Program-made: the position numbers and the translations under genes
Notes under the pieces: model-generated
Database searches by the model: none
Told to the model about the DNA's origin: nothing
What the model saw: the letters and a program-made list of their open reading frames with translations, nothing else
Part shown: positions 18,328-26,905 of the stretch, piece by piece
Position numbering within the stretch: position 1 is the stretch's first letter
Layout: each line of letters opens with the position of its first letter
NCBI RefSeq assembly: GCF_000518705.1
Contig: NZ_JAEC01000029.1
Span: 1-64,000 of the forward strand
Reading direction: 5' to 3'
Length of the DNA: 64,000 bases
DNA from: Shewanella colwelliana ATCC 39565
GTDB taxonomy: Bacteria; Pseudomonadota; Gammaproteobacteria; Enterobacterales; Shewanellaceae

Positions 18328-19809
18328 ATGGCTGCCGAAATAGAACTAAAACTATTTTTCCCTGAAAATGAACGAGAACGCTTGGTGTCACTGCTTGACA
18401 GTCTACCTCATAGTGACCCAAAAGGAACAAAACATCTTAGCAATTGTTATTACGATACGCCGAAATTAACCCTAAGACATTGGGATATGGGGTTACGAAT
18501 TCGTGGTTGCGATGGTCGCTTCGAACAGACGATTAAGACGGCAGGCACGGTTGTCGGTGGTGTGCACTCACGCCCAGAATACAATATTGATATCGATCAA
18601 CCAAAGGTCAATTTATCGCTTTTTCCACAAAAAATTTGGCCACAAGAGGCTGAATTAGTCCAAGTGCAGCAACAACTGAAACCACTATTTGATACCGATT
18701 TTACCCGTATGACCTGGCATATCTACCTAGATGATAGCCTGGTTGAAGTTGCCCTTGATGTGGGTACGGTAAGTGCTAACGGCATTAATGAACCAATATG
18801 TGAGCTTGAGTTTGAGTTATTGGCGGGTGACACTCAAGCCTTATTGGCTTTAGGCCTACAAGTGACTGCCCAGATCCCAGCACGTTTGGGTCATGACAGT
18901 AAAGCTAAGCGTGGTTATCGACTTGCGGCCATGGCAAGCCCTTTAAGTTTAGAGGCATTAGAGTTTATTGAATTGCCGCAAAAAACGACGCTTAAACAGA
19001 CTTTTATAACTTTATTGAGTACAGGTTTAGAGCGTTGGCAGTTGCTTGAAACTATGCTGCTTGATGCGCCCGATGAGCAGCTACCTGAACTGAGCTATCG
19101 ATTGCGCGCCTGTGTGCGGTTATTACGCTGTACCTTGTCGCAGTTTAATTTGCTCGATGATGAATTAACCCATGGTTTTGATTGCATTGAATCTCACTTA
19201 GCATTTGTCGAAGATGGATTAAGCTACAGTCAGATTTTAGACAGCCAGGCTGCGCTGATTGCCAAACAGCCACGGCAAGCTGACTTAGCACATTGGGTGG
19301 CTCAAGGATTAACTGAGTTGGCGATTCCTAACGCGATAGCACTCATGTTAGCCGACACCTGTTACGGTCATTTGCAGATGCGCTTAGTCTCCTTACTATT
19401 TGACTGCCGCGGTGGGCGAATTCATGTTGAGCCACATCTGGGTGTGCAACAATTTGCCGACAAAATGCAAGAAGCCTCCTGGCAGCGGATTGTGGCGCTA
19501 ATGCCGGCCGAAGTAGATTTGGACAGCGATGATTATCAGTCGTTTGCCAAAGCATTAGATGAAAGTATTTTTGTGGGGGTGGCGTATGGTGAACTTTACC
19601 CCAGCAAAGGGCGTGATCTGTTTCGTGCGCCGTGGCGGGATCTTGCGATGGGCATAAGAACCTTGGCGGCGTATCGACGTTTAAGTCTTATTAGTCAGGC
19701 ACATCAGCTTGATATTCAAGACTGGTTGGATAATAAAGAGCAAAGCTTACTCTTTGCAATGGAGCATTCAAGACGCTCTGCACTTAAATCTCAACCCTAT
19801 TGGCGTTAG
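18328..19809 (+). CDS. ygiF: CYTH-CHAD protein, inorganic triphosphatase YgiF
   Basis: A 493-residue cytoplasmic protein. The N-terminal CYTH domain (about 1-200) shows the ExExK signature EIELK (residues 4-8) and the later LGHDSKAKRGYRL; the C-terminal CHAD domain is helical (about 225-490). E. coli YgiF hydrolyses triphosphate to phosphate and diphosphate. I chose the ATG at 18328, which places ExExK at the normal position; a GTG five codons earlier is possible. Nearby phosphate transport genes fit a phosphate theme. In E. coli ygiF is followed directly by glnE; here a 7-kb opposite-strand block lies between them. Confidence 0.88.
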   Translation: MAAEIELKLFFPENERERLVSLLDSLPHSDPKGTKHLSNCYYDTPKLTLRHWDMGLRIRGCDGRFEQTIKTAGTVVGGVHSRPEYNIDIDQPKVNLSLFPQKIWPQEAELVQVQQQLKPLFDTDFTRMTWHIYLDDSLVEVALDVGTVSANGINEPICELEFELLAGDTQALLALGLQVTAQIPARLGHDSKAKRGYRLAAMASPLSLEALEFIELPQKTTLKQTFITLLSTGLERWQLLETMLLDAPDEQLPELSYRLRACVRLLRCTLSQFNLLDDELTHGFDCIESHLAFVEDGLSYSQILDSQAALIAKQPRQADLAHWVAQGLTELAIPNAIALMLADTCYGHLQMRLVSLLFDCRGGRIHVEPHLGVQQFADKMQEASWQRIVALMPAEVDLDSDDYQSFAKALDESIFVGVAYGELYPSKGRDLFRAPWRDLAMGIRTLAAYRRLSLISQAHQLDIQDWLDNKEQSLLFAMEHSRRSALKSQPYWR

Positions 19810-20597
19810 CGTTTCTGTTGCACTTGCTGCTTGAGGGTTTCAATCTCTTGCAGTAGGTGTTGTTGGTTTAGTTCCATCCTATCAAGGGCCATCTTTAGCT
19901 CGCAGCGTATCTCTTGCCTTTGGCTTTCCATTCTTTCGCTCTCATCGGGAGAGATGAACAGTGATGCCATGTAACCTGAGATCACCCCAAAAAAGCTGAC
20001 ACCACAGATAATGACGACCCCGCCAATAATGTGGCCGACGGTGGTAACGGGGTAATAGTCGCCATAACCAACGGTAGAGATAGTCACTAATGCCCACCAA
20101 ATAGCACTTTCAGCGGTTTGAATATTGGCCCCTGGGACACCTGTTTCGACAATTAGCATGAGTACTGAGGCAAAGGCCAGTATGGTGACCATGGCGACTA
20201 ATAAACTGGCTAACGTGGCCTGGCTACGTTGCTTCATCAGTGGAACTAATATTGATTGAGTCATGCGGATCAGGCGGATGACTCGTAAGATCTGGAAAAG
20301 CCGCGCCATTCGCAGTGGTTCAATGGCAGGGATACTGGCGATCAGATCGACCCAATTGTGTTTGATGTAGAAAAGTTTATCGTTGGCGCGTATAAAATTG
20401 ATTAAGAAGTGGCTAATAAAGATGACGCAGATGCTGGTATCAATCATCAGTAGTAAGCGGCGTGTTTCGCTATCTAATTTCGCAAAGGTCAACACCAGTA
20501 CAATGAACACCGAAACTAAAGAAAGGGCCATCATAGCAAGCTGAAACGGAGTCGGTGCCTGATCGACGGGGAGTAACCAACGTTTCTTATCTGCCAT
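19806..20597 (-). CDS. Voltage-gated-type potassium channel
   Basis: A 263-residue six-helix ion channel. Segments: S1 about 18-40, S2 about 47-68, S3 about 81-92, a positively charged S4 (RMARLFQILRVIRLIRM, 96-112), S5 about 128-150, pore loop with selectivity filter TVGYGD (175-180), S6 about 186-214, then a coiled coil (220-263) that may drive tetramer assembly. The filter is that of a K+ channel. AAGGAG before the ATG fixes the start. It overlaps the convergent ygiF by four bases. It is the last gene of the PspA-containing block, though 55 bp separate it from the next gene upstream. Confidence 0.88.
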   Translation of the reverse strand: MADKKRWLLPVDQAPTPFQLAMMALSLVSVFIVLVLTFAKLDSETRRLLLMIDTSICVIFISHFLINFIRANDKLFYIKHNWVDLIASIPAIEPLRMARLFQILRVIRLIRMTQSILVPLMKQRSQATLASLLVAMVTILAFASVLMLIVETGVPGANIQTAESAIWWALVTISTVGYGDYYPVTTVGHIIGGVVIICGVSFFGVISGYMASLFISPDESERMESQRQEIRCELKMALDRMELNQQHLLQEIETLKQQVQQKR

Positions 20598-20652
20598 GAA
20601 TCAAACTCCTTCCTACAACGCTCGGTAACCTAAAGTCTCTACTCTGCTAATA

Positions 20653-20985
20653 CTATTCGCTTTCAACAACAAAATGAACCAGATCATCGAGTACTCGCTT
20701 TTTTATTTCGAGTTGATCCGTTGCAGATAGGCTATATTTCTCAGCAAGTTGCTCATAGTCATCTTGGCTCAAAGAAACGGTAAGTCTTGGACGTTTGGGG
20801 CGCTTAGTCACGTTAAGGCCGAGGATGGTACGGATTTGATCAGAGGGGCTGACGCCTGAATCTAAGGCTGCTTTTCGGATTGAATACTGAAACTGCTCAT
20901 CCAGATCGAACGCCACTTGGGTTGCTTTGGCGGCTTTTTGGTTTTGTTGCCACTGTTCGGGAAGTGGATGTTTGGTTTTACTCAT
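20653..20985 (-). CDS. Hypothetical protein of the PspA block
   Basis: A 110-residue soluble, charged protein without signal peptide. Two similar halves can be seen, each with a short strand followed by helices: TQVAFDLDEQFQYSIRKAAL (about 22-41) and PRLTVSLSQDDYEQLAEKYS (about 66-85). That layout recalls ribbon-helix-helix folds, but this is only a resemblance. AAGGA about 8 bases before the ATG supports the start. Position between the channel and DUF2491 suggests a role in the same system. Confidence 0.65.
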   Translation of the reverse strand: MSKTKHPLPEQWQQNQKAAKATQVAFDLDEQFQYSIRKAALDSGVSPSDQIRTILGLNVTKRPKRPRLTVSLSQDDYEQLAEKYSLSATDQLEIKKRVLDDLVHFVVESE

Positions 20986-21046
20986 TGACTAATCCTTGCT
21001 TCTTGGCTTTTTCATCTCGATGTCAAAGCCAAGATATTGGTAACGC

Positions 21047-21694
21047 TTAAATTTGGCCGGGCCAGTATTCACGAATATCGCTTAAGGGACGGTATAAGGT
21101 TAACATAACATCGGTTTCACCACCTTCATAGACCTCGATGTCTAGCGCATAACGTTCCTCATCATCGAGCAGCAGATATGACTCGAATGCATCGCCTGTG
21201 GCGCCCTCGGCATCTTGTGGCGGACGTTGGTTGCGGTAATCTTCGCGGTGAAAATAGCCAAACTGGGCAAAATTAATTTGATGGTATTGTTTTCCAAGCC
21301 ACTGTTCAAGTTGCTCAGGTATTGAAGGTTGCACGGTGAGATTTGCCTGCACATCCTCTTCAAAAATATCGCTAAACTGCTCAAGGTCAAAAATTTGCTC
21401 AACCAGATTGCGGGGGATCTTTAGGGAAAAGGCTAAATAGGTTTCATCATCTTCATCTAAAGAGAGAAACAGTGTGTCGTTGCCGTGCCCTTTTAATACC
21501 CATTCGATAAGTTGTTTGCGTTCAAACTCATAGGTATTAACGGCTTCGACTCTTAGCTGTTGTCCGCGAAGTTGTGGCGGCAATGCAAAGCTATCATCAA
21601 GCGAGATCATATCACCTTTAAGCAAATGATTCGGATGAGAAAGTTGCCGTTTAGGCTGCTCTTTTTTACCGAAAAGCCCTTTTAAGAATCCCAT
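21047..21694 (-). CDS. yjfK: DUF2491 family protein (YjfK-like)
   Basis: A 215-residue soluble protein that I assign to the DUF2491 family. It opens with MGFLKGLFGKKEQPKR, a possible amphipathic membrane-binding helix, and continues with a beta-rich acidic domain (NTYEFERKQLIEWVLKGHG, then LLLDDEERYALDIEVYEGGE) and a final REYWPGQI. In E. coli, YjfK is encoded beside the PspA homologue YjfJ, as here. The function is unknown; the setting points to a peripheral membrane protein working with PspA. TAGGAG precedes the ATG. A terminator-like hairpin separates it from pspA upstream. Confidence 0.75.
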   Translation of the reverse strand: MGFLKGLFGKKEQPKRQLSHPNHLLKGDMISLDDSFALPPQLRGQQLRVEAVNTYEFERKQLIEWVLKGHGNDTLFLSLDEDDETYLAFSLKIPRNLVEQIFDLEQFSDIFEEDVQANLTVQPSIPEQLEQWLGKQYHQINFAQFGYFHREDYRNQRPPQDAEGATGDAFESYLLLDDEERYALDIEVYEGGETDVMLTLYRPLSDIREYWPGQI

Positions 21695-21726
21695 GAAATG
21701 CTCCTAACGCGTGATCTTATTTAGCT

Positions 21727-21759
21727 AAAAAGCACCTTTAGGCTTGGCCTAAAGGTGCT
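21727..21759 (-). terminator. Terminator or attenuator between the PspA gene and the DUF2491 gene
   Basis: Perfect 13-bp stem AGCACCTTTAGGC/GCCTAAAGGTGCT with a three-base loop, followed on the minus strand by TTTTTAG. It lies within the gene block, so it would reduce transcription of the three genes downstream of pspA. Confidence 0.85.
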
Positions 21760-21781
21760 GTGAGGGAACTAAAGCAATAGA

Positions 21782-22468
21782 CTATTTACGTGCTTTTAGA
21801 CGATCGAGTACCGCATTGGCATTCGACTTTTGCTCACCAATTCCAGCTTCCGCTAACTTAGCATGCAGAGACTTATCACTGTTCTCTTCGGCCAAGGTTT
21901 CAGACGCCTTTAGACGGTCATCAAACTGCTGCTGACGTGCCTTGATTCGCTCAAGTGAATCTTTAGCATTGAGTAACTTTGAGTTACTGCTTGCGAACGA
22001 GTCTGTGATAGTCGCTGTCGCTTTTTGCACGCTTTCAGTGGTTTTAACCATGCTGAGCTGACGTTGGTAATCAGTGAGTTGACGTTCAGTCTTACGTACC
22101 AGCTCTTTTAGACGGGTCGCATGAGCACTGAAGCTGTCATTGGCCGATTGTTGGTCAGCAAGTTCTTGGTCGAGCTGCGCAATTTTCTCTGCAACTTCTA
22201 ATGCCAAGGTTTCATTTTCTTTCTCAAGCGCTTGAGTTGCGTAACCTTCATGTTCGCTAATAGAGCGTTTAAGGCGATCGATTTCACGGCTCGCTTGCAT
22301 CTCTTTAGCCATCACATCGGTGAGCTCACGCTTAGCTTTGGTGAGGTGCTTTTCAGCATCACGGATCTCTTGTTCAAAGATGCGTGTTGAGTTGGCATCG
22401 ACGATGGTTTGGCCGACTTCATTAGCGCCGCCACGAAATGCGGTTAAAATCTTATTTAGAATGCCCAT
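21782..22468 (-). CDS. yjfJ: PspA/IM30 family membrane-stress protein (YjfJ-like)
   Basis: A 228-residue, nearly all-helical coiled-coil protein of the PspA/Vipp1/IM30 (ESCRT-III-like) superfamily. It begins MGILNKILTAFRGGANEVGQ, the amphipathic membrane-binding helix, followed by long heptad-rich helices (residues 25-215). Such proteins coat and stabilise damaged inner membrane. This one goes with DUF2170, DUF2491 and DUF350 as in E. coli yjfI-yjfL, rather than with PspB/PspC/PspF, so it is the YjfJ-type paralogue. AAAGGAG precedes the ATG. I see no sigma-54 promoter in the 81 bp upstream. Confidence 0.88.
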   Translation of the reverse strand: MGILNKILTAFRGGANEVGQTIVDANSTRIFEQEIRDAEKHLTKAKRELTDVMAKEMQASREIDRLKRSISEHEGYATQALEKENETLALEVAEKIAQLDQELADQQSANDSFSAHATRLKELVRKTERQLTDYQRQLSMVKTTESVQKATATITDSFASSNSKLLNAKDSLERIKARQQQFDDRLKASETLAEENSDKSLHAKLAEAGIGEQKSNANAVLDRLKARK

Positions 22469-22549
22469 AATGTGGCTCCTTTATAAAGTAATGATTCAAG
22501 CGGTTTCAATATTGATAAGCCGCACCACTACATAACTAAAACGGTTGGG

Positions 22550-22963
22550 TTATTTTAAGTAATCGCTCAATTCGTCAATTACTTCTAAACAGTTGTCAGA
22601 CAGTACTGACAACTCTTGTTCAATTTCTAACATGCTCGATTGCACTGACAACGCACCGTAAACTACGTACTTATTGTCAATTTTTGCAAAGGAAGACAGT
22701 GGCATAGGGATGTTGAGTTCTAACATGGTTTCAAACATCTCACTACGACGTTCTTGGTTGACTTCATCTTCACCCCATAGGTAACTGATGCAAAGAATTT
22801 GATTATCAGTGACCGATACAAATACTGGGATCTCTTCACGGCCAACGATATTGACCTGAAGGACTTCGACATCACCATCGATGGGATAGCAGTCAAATTG
22901 AAAGCCGGTGTGGCTATTGTCACAAAGATCATTTAGATGGTTGGCAATGTTGTGAATGTTCAT
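22550..22963 (-). CDS. yjfI: DUF2170 family protein (YjfI-like)
   Basis: A 137-residue acidic soluble protein of the DUF2170 family (MNIHNIANHLNDLCDN at the start, then VEVLQVNIVGREEIPVFVSV, and a C-terminal LSDNCLEVIDELSDYL). DUF2170 proteins are encoded beside YjfJ-type PspA proteins; the role is unknown. I place the start at 22963, where GAGG stands about 8 bases upstream. A longer frame would run through the palindromic operators and overlap the spermidine synthase gene, which is unlikely. A promoter with two operators lies directly upstream, so this gene and the PspA gene can be transcribed on their own. Confidence 0.82.
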   Translation of the reverse strand: MNIHNIANHLNDLCDNSHTGFQFDCYPIDGDVEVLQVNIVGREEIPVFVSVTDNQILCISYLWGEDEVNQERRSEMFETMLELNIPMPLSSFAKIDNKYVVYGALSVQSSMLEIEQELSVLSDNCLEVIDELSDYLK

Positions 22964-22976
22964 ATTTGTCCTCTTT

Positions 22977-22989
22977 GACATATTATGTC
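22977..22989. promoter_or_regulatory. Palindromic operator GACATATTATGTC, copy 1
   Basis: A perfect 13-bp palindrome lying near the expected transcription start of the DUF2170-PspA promoter and 14 bp before the DUF2170 start. Copy 2 is 34 bp away centre to centre; a third identical site is at 26862. Spacing and sequence fit an operator bound by a dimeric repressor that I cannot name. Confidence 0.6.
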
Positions 22990-22997
22990 TGCGGTTA

Positions 22998-23025
22998 AAG
23001 ATAGCACTGAGACATAATATGTCAA
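22998..23025 (-). promoter_or_regulatory. Sigma-70-type promoter for the DUF2170-PspA genes
   Basis: On the minus strand, TTGACA (23020-23025) and TATCTT (22998-23003) are separated by 16 bp. The -35 box is a perfect match and the -10 box matches 4 of 6. The -35 box overlaps operator copy 2, and operator copy 1 lies just past the start point, as expected for repression. Confidence 0.55.
23011..23023. promoter_or_regulatory. Palindromic operator GACATAATATGTC, copy 2
   Basis: The same 13-bp palindrome read from the other strand. It overlaps the TTGACA box of the DUF2170 promoter. Confidence 0.6.
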
Positions 23026-23040
23026 GCGCTATTTTTGTGT

Positions 23041-24768
23041 TCAAAAAAGTGACACGTTTTCATTTTCTAACCAAGCTTGCTGATGGTACTGATACAGCTG
23101 CATTGAGCCTATGGCATTGATCTTCACTTGGCTTGCATCATGGTAATAGTTTCCGGGAAACTCAAAGGCTCCTTTAATCATGCCTGGGGTTAACCAAGCT
23201 TCATCAATGGACAGCTTATTCAAGCCTGCAAGCCTTGCTTGAGCATCTTTGCCTTGAAGGGTTGCAATACTCCATCCCCACTCACCGAAACTAGGGACAT
23301 TATGGTGGTATTGGTTAACCTTAAAGCCTGCACTTGCCAAGGTTTTGCCCACTGAGATAAACGCCTTGGGCGCATGATAGGGCGAAGTCGACTGTACTGT
23401 TAGTGCTCCATCTGCACTTAAGAGTTCCTTAAGTTTGCGATAAAAAAGATCTGAATAGAGTTTATTGAGATCTGGATGGCTCGGATCCGGCAGATCAACA
23501 ATGATCACATCATACTTTTCACCACGCTGAATAAGCTTATCTGTGCCGTTAAAGGCGTCATCGAAGAGCAACTCGACTCGTGGATCATTCAGCGCATCGG
23601 CATTAAGTTTCTTCAGTGCTAGATTTAAGCGTGCAGGCATGGCGTCGCTGCCATCTTTAAATAAGTTGACTAAATCCTTATCCAAATCCATCAACGTGAC
23701 GTGTTTAGGTTGCCATTTGAACACTTGTCTCAGGCCAAGGCCATCCCCGCCGCCGATGATCAGCACCTTGTCATGGCGCGCGCTGGCTTCAAGTGTTGGG
23801 TGTACTAGAAACGAGTGGTAGATATGTTCATCTTGGCTGGAAAACTGCAAACGGCCATTAATATAGAGTGAGTAGACAGGTGAGAGATCGTTGCCCCGCA
23901 GGCGCTCAGTGAAAGTGAGTTGCTGAAAGCGCGTCGCTTTGGCGTAAACCACCTTGTCTTTGTAGAGTAGATTATTAAAGTCTTGTTCCCAGTTTGGACC
24001 ATGCCAAGCGAGTAGCAGTAAGAGACCAGTGGCAAACAGATGGCCAACGAGCAGCAACCTAACGTAACGAATTTTACTCCAGAAACGCCAGATGAAAATA
24101 AAGCCGGCCAAGAGATTAAAACTGGCGGTGAGCGCTGCGGCGAGCTGAATGTCGATGGCAAGCATAAAGCTCACCCAAATGGCGGCACCTATGCCTGCAC
24201 CAATATAGTCGGCACCATAGATAGTGCCTGCGTTATGCATCAAGTGTTCGTCGCAAAGCGATTGTCTTACTCGTGCGATAAGCGGGATCTCCATACCAAT
24301 CATCAAGCCGAGTAACACACCCCAGAAGTAGGGGAGATGTTCGCTTAGCTTTTGCAGCCAGCCAATAGCACCGCCTTGGGGCAGTTGATCGGGCGGTAAG
24401 CCCAAGGTATTAGCAATGATGATAGGTAACTGCTGGCCAAAGCCGATAACGGCGGCAGTAATGAGAATAGCCAGTGCGCCGCATAGGGCGACACACAACT
24501 CTAATACCGCAAAACCAGTATAAGCACAGCGGATTTTCCGTGCGGCAAAGGCGCCCACCCCCATAGAAACAATCATAAGACCTATCATGGTATAGATAGC
24601 GGCTTCTAATGCCCCCAGCACCCGACCGGCATAATGAGAGAGCAGGTATTCATAGATCAGGCCGCAACCGGCCAAGACTGCCATGATCCCCAATAGCAAG
24701 ATATCATCGAACCAAGAGAGTTTTTTCGCGCCAACAGGTGTTGGCGCATTTTCAGTAGGTGACTGCAT
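23041..24768 (-). CDS. Membrane-bound polyamine aminopropyltransferase-like protein (spermidine synthase family)
   Basis: A 575-residue fusion of about seven membrane helices (residues ~20-265) to a cytoplasmic spermidine-synthase-type domain (~280-520). The AdoMet-site motif VLIIGGGDGLGLRQV, the acidic VTLMDLDKDLV strand end and the VDLPDPSHPDLNKLYS active-site region are present. Soluble SpeE enzymes transfer aminopropyl groups from decarboxylated AdoMet to putrescine; here VDLPDP replaces the usual DSSDP-like motif, so the substrate may differ. AAGGA precedes the ATG. It lies between DUF350 (24 bp upstream) and DUF2170. No AdoMet decarboxylase gene is in the block. Confidence 0.85.
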   Translation of the reverse strand: MQSPTENAPTPVGAKKLSWFDDILLLGIMAVLAGCGLIYEYLLSHYAGRVLGALEAAIYTMIGLMIVSMGVGAFAARKIRCAYTGFAVLELCVALCGALAILITAAVIGFGQQLPIIIANTLGLPPDQLPQGGAIGWLQKLSEHLPYFWGVLLGLMIGMEIPLIARVRQSLCDEHLMHNAGTIYGADYIGAGIGAAIWVSFMLAIDIQLAAALTASFNLLAGFIFIWRFWSKIRYVRLLLVGHLFATGLLLLLAWHGPNWEQDFNNLLYKDKVVYAKATRFQQLTFTERLRGNDLSPVYSLYINGRLQFSSQDEHIYHSFLVHPTLEASARHDKVLIIGGGDGLGLRQVFKWQPKHVTLMDLDKDLVNLFKDGSDAMPARLNLALKKLNADALNDPRVELLFDDAFNGTDKLIQRGEKYDVIIVDLPDPSHPDLNKLYSDLFYRKLKELLSADGALTVQSTSPYHAPKAFISVGKTLASAGFKVNQYHHNVPSFGEWGWSIATLQGKDAQARLAGLNKLSIDEAWLTPGMIKGAFEFPGNYYHDASQVKINAIGSMQLYQYHQQAWLENENVSLF

Positions 24769-24792
24769 TAATTCCTTTTAACCCGGCTGAGG

Positions 24793-25692
24793 TTACGCCA
24801 TTAAGCTGGTGAGAATTAACGCAATGGCGACGCTGATAGCAAGCTCTACCGTTGCGATACCAATATTATGCTGTTGTTCAACCTCTTGGGCTAAATCAAT
24901 GTTAGCAAGCACTAACTTTTTCACTAAGGCTTGCAGTAATGATAAACAGATAAGCATGATAACTGAGAACACTAACCAGCCAATAAGGTTGCTGATATAG
25001 GCTTGTGGTTCATAGAGGATAAAATGGCTGGCGGCATTAAAACTCAATGCCATGGCAAGCATATAACCACTGTGACGAATTGCCACTGCTGTGTGACCTT
25101 GTGCTAAAGCCGCTTGCATTGACGCATCTTGATTGCGTTTAGCGTACTGTTTTTCGCGAAAGCGGGTTAACAACACTAACATCAATTGTGAAATCGCGAA
25201 GGCACTAAAAATCGCGATAAAGGTGTCTAAGGTGATATCTTCAGCCCACATCAATACTGAGCGTATGATAATGGCTGTGGCGATAGCTGCAGCGGCATCG
25301 ACAAGGGCGACAGAGATATTGCCTTTGAGGATCATGGCATTTTTATCTATCTCATTGAGGGCGATTTTGTCATGGAGAAAACGACCTAACTTAATCAGCA
25401 ATAGACCAAAAATACCGTAGGCACTCATGCCGATGGCTTCATAAAGAAAAGAGTGTGCGGCTTCACCTGTGATAGCACCCGTTAGCACTATGCCTAAACC
25501 TGCCACAGCGCCAGCGGTACTGATCCCAAAGGCGAAGTTGTCGCGCTCTGAGAGTTCGTGGGTGCTATTTACTTTGAGGTTCCATCCCTGCAGATAACGC
25601 ATGGCTGTGAGTAAGATTACGGCGATAGTGATATCGATGGCGAGTATGCCTATCAGTTCAGATGTGATGCCGAAGTTTTGAAAAAATGTCAT
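24793..25692 (-). CDS. yjfL: DUF350 family membrane protein (YjfL-like)
   Basis: A 299-residue inner-membrane protein with about eight hydrophobic segments. Two tandem DUF350 units are visible (about residues 10-145 and 155-298), each ending in a helix-rich stretch. DUF350 is the family of E. coli YjfL and commonly co-occurs with PspA-like proteins and polyamine- or glutathionylspermidine-type enzymes. AAAGGA precedes the ATG. It is 11 bp behind the lipoprotein gene, in one transcript. Confidence 0.8.
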   Translation of the reverse strand: MTFFQNFGITSELIGILAIDITIAVILLTAMRYLQGWNLKVNSTHELSERDNFAFGISTAGAVAGLGIVLTGAITGEAAHSFLYEAIGMSAYGIFGLLLIKLGRFLHDKIALNEIDKNAMILKGNISVALVDAAAAIATAIIIRSVLMWAEDITLDTFIAIFSAFAISQLMLVLLTRFREKQYAKRNQDASMQAALAQGHTAVAIRHSGYMLAMALSFNAASHFILYEPQAYISNLIGWLVFSVIMLICLSLLQALVKKLVLANIDLAQEVEQQHNIGIATVELAISVAIALILTSLMA

Positions 25693-25703
25693 CGTAATAT
25701 CCT

Positions 25704-26654
25704 TTATTTGCCCCGGCGCACACCACGGGTTGTGCGGTTGCCTGAATTTCTAAAGTTGCTGTTTTTAGAGTAGTTTGAGCGAAATTTACTTTTACTCGTG
25801 CCGGCTGTACTCGCTTTGGGAACGCTACTACTTTGGCGAGACAAGCTGGTGGAGCCAGAGCGAGATTTAGCGTAGGGGCTATCGAATTTTTTGCCCTGCG
25901 AATTAAACTGCTTCTTGGTACGCTGATAGGTCTGGTTTTGCGAGCTGGCCTGCTTTGGCGAAGTGTAGCGATAGCGACCTACATCGTTGTAGTAACTATA
26001 GTTTCGTCGGCTTGACCAGCGGTCGTAACCGATAGGCCCCCGAGTGAAGTTCGAGAACATCGCGTACATGCCATACCATGCCCAAAAAGACATGCCATTA
26101 GAACCCGTTTGCCAGTTGCCGTACGCAGGGTTGCCGACCAATTGGCTGCCTGCGCCAAAATCTTCGGCACCATTGGCGAGCACTGCCGCTTCGCGACTGA
26201 TGGAGTTGACGCGAGCGAGTGCGCCGTCAGACATATCGGCAACCACATTGACGGGGTCGGAGAGCATGTCATTAAACAGGCTAGGATCGGCTGCTTGATA
26301 GAGGTTTTCCGCCTCGTCGAGACGTTGATCGATATGGACAAAGTTATTGTCGTTGCCTAATTCACTCAAGCGCCGTTTTAGCGACGTAAATAATGGACCT
26401 TTACTGGTGCCGTCTTTAGCTAACTCTTGCAATAGTGGAGACAGGTCCGCTTTCTGGCTGGTGACTATGCTAGCGTATTGCTTGAGTAAGTTTGCATTAC
26501 GGATTTCGCCATTATCTAGCATCTGCCCAAGCGCAGCCACACGCGCTTCAGTCAGTCGCTGATAGTTAGCAATTTTTTCTGGCCTATCGTCACCGCACCC
26601 GACTTGGGTTAACAGTAGAGTCAAGGTGAGAACACGAATGAGCATTGCTGCCAT
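25704..26654 (-). CDS. Lipoprotein with a Ser/Arg/Tyr-rich tail, first gene of the PspA block
   Basis: A 316-residue protein with a lipoprotein signal (RVLTLTLLLTQVGCGDD; the lipid-carrying Cys is about residue 20). A helical domain follows (about 25-165), then an aromatic Gly/Trp/Tyr-rich segment (about 175-215, FWAWYGMYAMFSNF) and a strongly basic, low-complexity Ser/Arg/Asn tail to the end. The tail is reminiscent of RNA- or polyanion-binding segments but lies outside the cytoplasm. I do not recognise the family; it occupies the place of the DUF1190 lipoprotein YjfM of E. coli. GGAG precedes the start. Confidence 0.75.
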   Translation of the reverse strand: MAAMLIRVLTLTLLLTQVGCGDDRPEKIANYQRLTEARVAALGQMLDNGEIRNANLLKQYASIVTSQKADLSPLLQELAKDGTSKGPLFTSLKRRLSELGNDNNFVHIDQRLDEAENLYQAADPSLFNDMLSDPVNVVADMSDGALARVNSISREAAVLANGAEDFGAGSQLVGNPAYGNWQTGSNGMSFWAWYGMYAMFSNFTRGPIGYDRWSSRRNYSYYNDVGRYRYTSPKQASSQNQTYQRTKKQFNSQGKKFDSPYAKSRSGSTSLSRQSSSVPKASTAGTSKSKFRSNYSKNSNFRNSGNRTTRGVRRGK

Positions 26655-26861
26655 GGTTTCTCCATTATTGAGTTAGGATTGAGACTGATAATCGATGATC
26701 AGTTCATCACATCTTTGCATAATATAGCTGCTAGTTAGGGTATAGTAACCTTCTGCGAGCCATAATACGTAATCAATTGTCGAATCAATTCAACTTGATG
26801 ACGGCAATGCGTCAACTTGATCACGCCTTGGTTCCAATTGACACATATCTATATCATTCAA

Positions 26862-26874
26862 GACATATTATGTC
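26862..26874. promoter_or_regulatory. Palindromic operator GACATATTATGTC, copy 3
   Basis: A 13-bp palindrome identical to those at 22977 and 23011. It lies 32 bp before the glnE start and 208 bp before the divergent lipoprotein gene. It could serve either the glnE promoter or the long leader of the PspA block. A partial match (CATAATAT) is at about 26718. Confidence 0.55.
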
Positions 26875-26905
26875 GACCGTTTAAATGTTAGGGATTGTTT
26901 GGGCT

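What the first reader, a model, noticed from the sequence alone, without database searches (positions are those of the whole stretch)
19806..26654. An eight-gene PspA-polyamine-ion channel block lacking the usual ligase
Seen: K+ channel, small hypothetical, DUF2491, PspA/IM30, DUF2170, seven-helix spermidine-synthase-like protein, DUF350 and a basic-tailed lipoprotein, all on one strand. Known: E. coli carries a related set yjfI-J-K-L-M-C, in which YjfC is an ATP-grasp ligase of the glutathionylspermidine-synthase type. Here no ATP-grasp and no AdoMet decarboxylase gene is present, but an aminopropyltransferase fused to a membrane domain is. Inference: the block may make or attach a polyamine at the membrane and couple it to PspA-type membrane repair and ion flow.
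Basis: partly seen in the sequence, partly recalled or inferred. Interest (0 to 1): 0.65.

Follow-up and report, generated by a model that had tools for sequence, protein, structure and literature searches.

The report
PspA operon with membrane-stress regulon
A known bacterial membrane-repair gene block carries three copies of a short DNA palindrome that recurs in front of other membrane-care genes, which points to an unreported set of jointly controlled genes and to a small DNA-binding protein in the block as its likely switch.

Summary
The eight genes are real and on one strand, but the block is in print: Ravi et al. 2024 (PMC11237479, passages seen) describe this DUF2170(CesT/Tir)-PspA operon with the 7TM-spermidine-synthase, 8TM DUF350, lipoprotein, DUF4178 and sometimes a ribbon-helix-helix (RHH) gene. 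The polyamine reading is weak: no YjfC-type ligase and no AdoMet decarboxylase over cut-off in the genome.

Not found in print (ten searches): its control. GACATANTATGTC occurs six times in the 4.58-Mb genome: three in the window, on the block's two predicted promoters, and once each ahead of htpX, nfeD-qmcA and a bPH-like membrane gene. Sixty of 60 congeners sampled carry 4-9 copies, 363 against 11 for the reversed control. Among 247 genomes of the order, two or more sites occur in 56 of 77 with the RHH gene and 2 of 170 without; 17 of those 21 exceptions carry a variant site beside the operon. DUF2170 without RHH does not bring sites (1 of 29).

Best reading: the 110-aa tandem-RHH protein represses a membrane-integrity regulon, Psp-like but not PspF-driven at this operon. 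Binding and repression are inferred, not shown.

The parts
25704..26654 (-). lipoprotein-like protein with long basic, Ser-rich tail (first gene of unit 1); matches the place of Ravi's 'Ctha_1186' lipoprotein
   Evidence: ORF; no Pfam family; PMC11237479 passage
24793..25692 (-). tandem DUF350 (YjfL-type) membrane protein
   Evidence: two DUF350 stretches over cut-off
23041..24768 (-). N-terminal membrane domain fused to a spermidine-synthase-like domain
   Evidence: NF002956 662.8 bits; Spermine_synth; alignment to solved spermidine synthases
22550..22963 (-). DUF2170 (YjfI/BacA, CesT/Tir-like chaperone fold); longer in-frame starts exist up to 23044
   Evidence: PF09938; start chosen
21782..22468 (-). 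PspA/IM30 (YjfJ type)
   Evidence: PF04012 140.7 bits
21047..21694 (-). DUF4178-like cytoplasmic protein (not DUF2491)
   Evidence: 23.3 bits, cut-off 25; PMC11237479 names DUF4178 in this operon
20653..20985 (-). 110-aa tandem ribbon-helix-helix protein: proposed repressor
   Evidence: model b-a-a-b-a-a, pLDDT 78; best structural neighbours are single-chain RHH proteins; follows the operator across genomes
19806..20597 (-). voltage-gated-type K+ channel with C-terminal coiled-coil-like tail
   Evidence: Ion_trans, Ion_trans_2; TVGYGD filter read
26862..26874 (.). operator O1, on the predicted promoter P1 of the lipoprotein-DUF350-SpeE unit (also close to the divergent glnE start)
   Evidence: conserved in 74 of 79 named loci that have the lipoprotein
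23011..23023 (.). operator O2, overlapping the -35 hexamer of P2
22977..22989 (.). operator O3, at the predicted start of transcription of P2
22998..23025 (-). promoter P2: TTGACA-16-TATCTT with extended -10 TG
   Evidence: best promoter-like hit in the region; TTGACA kept in 79 of 79 paired loci
26848..26876 (-). promoter P1: TCGACA-17-TATAGA with TG before the -10 (read by eye; not in the list)
   Evidence: sequence; conserved context; TAT 15-18 bp after the hexamer at 63 of 74 sites
21731..21759 (-). terminator-like hairpin between pspA and the DUF4178 gene
   Evidence: 13 pairs then T-rich tail; a hairpin-plus-T in that gap in 23 of 94 related loci, so not general

Best explanation
The block is two adjacent transcription units (lipoprotein-DUF350-SpeE; DUF2170-PspA-DUF4178-RHH-K+ channel) whose last-but-one gene encodes a tandem ribbon-helix-helix protein. 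I propose that this protein binds GACAT-N3-ATGTC. At its own operon it would sit on the -35 and on the start site of a strong sigma-70 promoter and repress it; at the neighbouring unit it would cover the -35; at htpX it would cover the -10. The targets form a membrane-integrity regulon: YjfJ-type PspA, HtpX protease, the NfeD-QmcA (stomatin-like) pair, a bPH-domain membrane protein, and in other genera NhaA, a second SPFH protein, Rce1-like protease and the canonical psp operon. Shown here: the genes, the sites, their conservation, their placement relative to genes, and the co-distribution of sites and RHH gene. Inferred: that the RHH protein is the binder, that it represses, and that envelope damage is the signal. 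Weakest step (about 0.25): damage draws PspA and the DUF2170 chaperone-like protein to the membrane, and one of them releases or takes up the RHH protein. The SpeE/DUF350/channel/lipoprotein genes would be effectors (ion balance, modification of a membrane amine by an AdoMet-derived group).
For: Six exact sites in the own genome, control pattern 0 (GACATAWTATGTC); three are in the window and the other three lie just ahead of htpX, nfeD-qmcA and a bPH-like gene. Genus: 60 of 60 sampled genomes, 4-9 sites each, total 363 against 11 for the reversed pattern; each has one RHH homologue. Operator pair bracketing P2 in 20 of 20 genus loci and 79 of 80 named loci, though flanks vary. Order, 247 genomes: >=2 sites in 56 of 77 RHH+ and 2 of 170 RHH-; by genus 14 of 16 against 1 of 71. 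Of 106 DUF2170+ genomes, 56 of 77 with RHH against 1 of 29 without, and that one (G166) is a contig that ends before the RHH position. Exceptions: all 17 RHH+ f11 genomes carry GACATWWAATGTC within about 2.6 kb of the RHH gene; four f25 genomes have one canonical site each, ahead of htpX in both of the two fetched. Predicted contact residues Q..AF and R.(T/S) are kept in 20 of 20 divergent RHH proteins. Off-operon sites: 48 of 55 fetched loci fall in gene classes seen in at least two genomes. htpX: TTGAnn-16-TATTAT with the -10 inside the operator in 13 of 13. Fold: nearest solved structures are the F-relaxosome chains (TraY, recalled), single-chain Arc and AvtR.
Against: No binding or expression data. 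Part of the co-distribution is built in, because the operators lie in the promoter of the RHH operon itself and are inherited with it; related genomes are not independent (by family 9 of 11 against 1 of 16). G139 has two sites with neither RHH nor DUF2170. G081 (RHH+, 5 sites) has no site ahead of its DUF2170-PspA genes or of its RHH gene. One of 55 off-operon sites lies inside a large ORF (L096). At nfeD-qmcA I found no clear promoter overlap and the position could suit an activator; 5 of 13 RHH+ genomes with a QmcA homologue had no site in the fetched stretch. At canonical psp operons the site is about 72 bp ahead of a sigma-54 promoter, not on it. Foldseek E-values are poor (best 0.19) and VIA Z is 6-7 only; pLDDT is 78. 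The own-genome bPH hit is below the Pfam cut-off (17.7 against 22.5).
Confidence: 0.75

Rival explanations
1. One reading: the block makes or attaches a polyamine at the membrane and couples that to PspA repair and ion flow; regulation is secondary.
For: SpeE-type domain with conserved pocket residues, strongly conserved in the block; Ravi et al. suggest that PspA systems monitor polyamines or aminopropylation (passage).
Against: No AdoMet decarboxylase over cut-off and no YjfC ligase in the genome; no carboxynorspermidine decarboxylase over cut-off (22.4 bits against 409); the core runs without SpeE in the f11 and f12 loci seen.
Confidence: 0.15
2. The palindrome is bound by a different regulator that happens to be inherited with the RHH operon; the RHH protein does something else.
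For: No binding data; sites and RHH operon are linked by descent.
Against: In this set sites fail to appear in 28 of 29 DUF2170+ RHH- genomes; isolated gains agree: among 18 f7 genomes only G177 has the RHH gene and only it has sites; the half-site and the predicted contact residues are kept together.
Confidence: 0.12
3. The RHH protein is an activator, or a repressor at some promoters and an activator or architectural factor at others.
For: At nfeD-qmcA the site seems to lie upstream of a conserved TGATATAGT element; at canonical psp it lies 71-74 bp ahead of TGGCAC-N5-TTG in 6 of 6 cases, where enhancer binding would be expected.
Against: At P2, P1 and htpX the site covers the -35, the -35 and the -10 of good sigma-70 promoters, the usual place of a repressor.
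Confidence: 0.15
4. Only the operon's own sites matter (plain autoregulation); sites elsewhere are chance.
For: Genus f2 has 2-3 sites per genome, in L046 the two at the operon itself; f11 genomes have 1-2.
Against: htpX sites recur in f1, f12 and f25, nfeD-qmcA sites in f1, f6, f12 and f16; 363 against 11 in the genus.
Confidence: 0.04

Closest known systems
Ravi et al. 2024 second CesT/Tir-PspA operon group (example AAN56744-AAN56747; PMC11237479)
   Same: Same genes: DUF2170, PspA, 7TM-spermidine synthase, 8TM DUF350, lipoprotein, DUF4178, sometimes a final RHH gene
   Different: The passages I saw mention no operator, promoter or regulon, and no K+ channel in this group (they name the channel in the third group)
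E. coli yjfIJKLMC and Ravi's third group (ATP-grasp ligase, DUF2491, DUF1190, K+ channel)
   Same: DUF2170-PspA dyad, DUF350; K+ channel in Ravi's third group
   Different: No ATP-grasp ligase and no DUF2491 or DUF1190 hit here; RHH gene and palindrome instead; of the 29 order genomes with DUF2170 but no RHH, 28 have at most one site.
PspF/sigma-54 phage-shock-protein response (E. coli pspABCDE)
   Same: PspA at the centre; membrane integrity as theme; canonical psp operon is itself a target in five f6 genomes
   Different: Here the PspA operon has a sigma-70-like promoter with operators and an RHH protein; no sigma-54 enhancer layout at P2
P. aeruginosa bac cluster (BacA = DUF2170, BacB = PspA; PMC10948618)
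   Same: DUF2170-PspA dyad
   Different: sigma-54-type -24/-12 promoter in the passage seen; no spermidine-synthase-like gene near it
Tandem RHH DNA-binding proteins: TraY (recalled as chains E-G of the relaxosome entries), AvtR, single-chain Arc
   Same: Predicted fold: two ribbon-helix-helix units in one chain
   Different: No detectable sequence relation in PDB; Z of 6-7 and poor Foldseek E-values
CpxR and sigma-32 regulons (recalled)
   Same: htpX and qmcA-type genes as targets
   Different: Palindrome unlike the CpxR box (recalled GTAAA-N5-GTAAA)

Membership tests
Ravi 2024 CesT/Tir-PspA-SpeE operon group | DUF2170-PspA dyad with 7TM-fused spermidine-synthase domain, DUF350, lipoprotein and DUF4178 | tested here: met
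   DUF4178 just under cut-off, 7TM count taken from the paper
E. coli yjfIJKLMC / third group | ATP-grasp (GSP_synth) ligase | tested here: not met
   no PF03738 match in the genome
Canonical Psp system | sigma-54 promoter with PspF enhancer at the pspA operon | tested here: not met
   P2 is TTGACA-16-TATCTT; PspF itself was not searched for
Polyamine aminopropyltransferase | sequence family and pocket residues | tested here: met
   NF002956 over cut-off; GGGDG, DLPDP and Q kept by eye (roles recalled)
Polyamine aminopropyltransferase | AdoMet decarboxylase in the cell to supply the donor | tested here: not met
   PF02675 best 11.7 bits, cut-off 25; other decarboxylase families not searched
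Ribbon-helix-helix transcription factor | b-a-a fold (here twice) | tested here: met
   prediction only: neighbours; no curated RHH family over cut-off
Ribbon-helix-helix transcription factor | binds its operator | not testable with these tools
   co-distribution only

The most novel reading that the evidence does not exclude
A new envelope-stress circuit of marine gammaproteobacteria: a tandem-RHH repressor and the DUF2170 chaperone-like protein form a partner switch that reads the state of PspA, controls YjfJ-type PspA, HtpX, NfeD-QmcA and ion transporters, and in Colwellia/Thalassotalea-like genera also sits at a fixed place in the enhancer region of the canonical PspF/sigma-54 psp operon, wiring two phage-shock systems together.
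Probability: 0.3. Interest if true: 0.85.

Novelty: new variant of a known kind. Interest (0 to 1): 0.6.

Why it matters
How PspA systems outside the PspF type are switched on is largely open, and DUF2170, DUF350 and DUF4178 have no settled function. A named operator, a named candidate regulator and a defined target list turn this into a direct experiment in Shewanella oneidensis MR-1. If right, it is an envelope-stress regulon conserved through several families of Enterobacterales (GTDB sense) that groups HtpX, a stomatin-like pair, Na+/H+ exchange and two kinds of PspA.

Tried and rejected
Polyamine biosynthesis as the main function: searched for YjfC ligase, AdoMet decarboxylase and carboxynorspermidine decarboxylase in the genome, none over cut-off. 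The PF01536-type AdoMet decarboxylase was not searched.

DUF2170 as the thing that brings the sites: rejected by the 29 RHH- genomes. Terminator after pspA as a general feature: only 23 of 94 loci. Sequence relatives of the RHH protein in PDB: none at E up to 10. Test on nfeD-qmcA in chosen genomes (30 handles picked by hand, 20 RHH+ and 10 RHH-): matches in 13 and 6; site present in 8 of 13 and 0 of 6, but the RHH- genomes lack close orthologues, so it is a weak test. Locating the two G139 sites was not possible from the capped list.

Literature: ten searches. The motif search found only an unrelated plant paper. Locus-tag search with guessed S. oneidensis tags found nothing. Two Shewanella/Proteobacteria regulon papers had no hit for htpX, psp or RHH terms (main text only). 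Papers outside the library were not searched.
Full report
Observation. The eight ORFs lie on the minus strand at 19806-26654. Family searches give, in transcription order: lipoprotein-like protein without family, tandem DUF350, membrane-fused spermidine-synthase-like protein (NF002956, 662.8 bits), DUF2170, PspA/IM30, DUF4178 (just under cut-off, not DUF2491), a 110-aa protein without family, and a K+ channel. They sit between glnE and a CYTH-domain gene.

Already known. Passages of PMC11237479 describe this operon: a DUF2170(CesT/Tir)-PspA dyad with a spermine/spermidine-synthase domain fused to 7TM, 8TM DUF350, a lipoprotein, DUF4178, and in some cases a final RHH transcription factor. The ATP-grasp ligase belongs to a separate third group. 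So the 'missing ligase' is a feature of a described group.

Polyamine question. The genome shows no GSP_synth match, no AdoMet decarboxylase over cut-off (best 11.7 bits) and no carboxynorspermidine decarboxylase over cut-off (22.4 against 409). The synthase domain aligns with solved spermidine synthases (25 PDB sequences at E up to 0.001) and by eye keeps GGGDG, both Asp of DLPDP and the Gln of VQSTSPY, with YHE changed to YHS (roles of residues recalled). It is therefore an intact-looking enzyme without an evident aminopropyl donor; AdoMet itself is a possible donor (inference).

The palindrome. Reading the sequence showed GACATAATATGTC/GACATATTATGTC at 22977-22989, 23011-23023 and 26862-26874. 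In the window alone this is unremarkable when two mismatches are allowed (3 found, 1.44 expected; 17 of 100 shuffles reach 3), but all three are exact. In the whole genome the exact pattern occurs six times, reversed control 0 (at up to one mismatch 8 against 2). The three others lie just ahead of htpX (L003), nfeD-qmcA (L004) and a gene for a small membrane protein with a weak bPH match (L005). Of the two one-mismatch sites, one is ahead of yccF (L010), the other inside or at the end of a coding sequence (L009).

Genus. g1 is Shewanella: named Shewanella contigs have the same lengths as fetched G contigs. A sample of 60 genomes gave 4-9 exact sites in each (363 in all against 11 for the reversed pattern) and one RHH homologue in each. 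All 20 genus loci fetched have a pair of sites 33-38 bp apart ahead of DUF2170. Among 80 named loci (mostly Shewanella, with Parashewanella, Paraferrimonas, Thalassotalea and two MAGs) 79 have the pair, spacing 31-38 and 34 in 62; TTGACA in all 79, -10 TATCTT with TG before it in most. The same promoter is the top promoter-like hit of the region. So one site covers the -35 and the other the likely start site. A third site ahead of the lipoprotein gene is kept in 74 of 79.

Order. In one draw of 247 genomes: 77 RHH+ (alignment A1, E up to 0.01). At least two exact sites: 56 of 77 RHH+, 2 of 170 RHH-. Collapsed: genera 14 of 16 against 1 of 71, families 9 of 11 against 1 of 16. DUF2170 is present in 106 genomes, all 77 RHH+ and 29 RHH-; among those 29 one has two or more sites and three have one. 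That one, G166, is cut off in the DUF4178 gene before the RHH position. The other RHH- genome with sites, G139, is unexplained. The 21 RHH+ genomes with fewer than two sites are 17 of f11 and 4 of f25. In f11, 21 of 21 genomes sampled carry GACATWWAATGTC, and for the 17 whose RHH place I have it lies within about 2.6 kb of it. In f25, the two loci fetched have GACTTATTATGTC near DUF2170, and the single exact site elsewhere is ahead of htpX in both of two fetched. In the 20 order loci a pair with intact half-sites lies ahead of DUF2170 in 10; f11 (5) has one intact and one degraded; f25 (2) and L049 one; L045 is cut by the contig; L040 and its separate DUF2170 contig L221 have none.

Caution on the statistics. 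The sites are part of the promoter of the RHH operon, so linkage by descent explains some of the association, and close genomes are not independent. The points that linkage does not explain are the sites at distant genes and the sporadic cases: among f7 only G177 has the RHH gene and only it has sites; in f6 the RHH+ genomes (7) have 2-7 sites and the RHH- ones at most 1.

Regulon. I fetched 55 off-operon site loci from RHH+ genomes chosen by hand from the capped lists (37 + 18). Classes: htpX 12, nfeD-qmcA 11, bPH 5, canonical psp 5, nhaA 4, second SPFH 3, M16 peptidase/SulP 3, a 96-98-aa protein 3, Rce1-like 2, singletons 7 (one, L096, inside a large ORF). Thus 48 of 55 fall in classes seen in two or more genomes. 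Pfam confirmed representatives: NhaA, Band_7, PspA_IM30, M16, Rce1-like, bPH_5 (over cut-off in L106 and L113), sulphate permease. Two control sites from RHH- genomes (L092, L093) were not ahead of such genes.

Promoter placement. htpX: TTGAnn-16-TATTAT, the -10 lying inside the operator, in 13 of 13 (L228 and L234 are near identical). P2 and P1: operator on the -35. nfeD-qmcA: placement unclear, possibly upstream of a TGATATAGT element. Canonical psp operons of five f6 genomes: 6 of 6 sites lie 71-74 bp ahead of TGGCAC-N5-TTG, a sigma-54 signature (recalled) that occurs 21 times in 3.2 Mb of strand-summed held sequence, these included, and within 250 bp of none of 11 other target sites tested. 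PspA there was confirmed by Pfam in three of five genomes and read from ORFs in two.

Regulator. The 110-aa protein is predicted b-a-a-b-a-a (pLDDT 78, pTM 0.68). Best neighbours by VIA-align are F-plasmid relaxosome chains (Z 6.7; TraY by recall), permuted single-chain Arc (6.4) and AvtR (5.7), followed by DndE (5.4); Foldseek E-values are not significant (best 0.19). The ribbons Q.AF(D/E) and R(L/I)(T/S) are kept in 20 of 20 divergent homologues, matching the constancy of the GACAT half-site while the centre varies.

Mechanism proposed. Repressor on GACAT-N3-ATGTC; membrane damage releases it; the operon and the regulon come on; RHH refills the sites. The link from damage to release is unknown. 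RHH never occurs without DUF2170 in the 247 genomes, which makes the chaperone-like DUF2170 protein, with PspA, the first candidate for the relay.

Verdict. The operon is known; the operator, the regulon and the assignment of the RHH gene as its regulator I did not find in ten searches of the held library. New variant of a known kind, with interest in the regulon rather than in polyamines.

Noticed in passing
window 25704-26015: The lipoprotein's C-terminal third is rich in Ser, Arg, Lys and Tyr and nearly free of acidic residues; its partner is unknown.
   Followed up: no
L010 (G000:C2:142651): A one-mismatch palindrome GGCATAATATGTC lies ahead of yccF, a possible weak regulon member.
   Followed up: partly
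L075, L077, L082, L085, L225: In f6 genomes a small secreted protein is encoded ahead of canonical pspA, with the palindrome 71-74 bp before a sigma-54-like promoter; TGGTTAATTTAACC palindromes nearby in L225 and L085 may be enhancer sites.
   Followed up: partly
G139 (f21): Two exact palindromes without RHH or DUF2170 match; their places were not listed.
   Followed up: no
L103 (G020:C63) and G020:C47: The operator pair appears at the ends of two contigs, so G020's count of 7 probably counts one pair twice.
   Followed up: partly
G107:C1:4263697-4264014: The RHH match in G107 has one in-frame TAG stop although the genome keeps two sites.
   Followed up: no
L037, L049: In f25 and one f15 locus the gene between DUF2170 and RHH is a coiled-coil-like protein with no PspA hit in Pfam.
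   Followed up: partly
L090, L230, L232: A 96-98-aa membrane-anchored protein with CxxC-type cysteines follows two palindromes 24 or 38 bp apart in three f12 genomes.
   Followed up: partly
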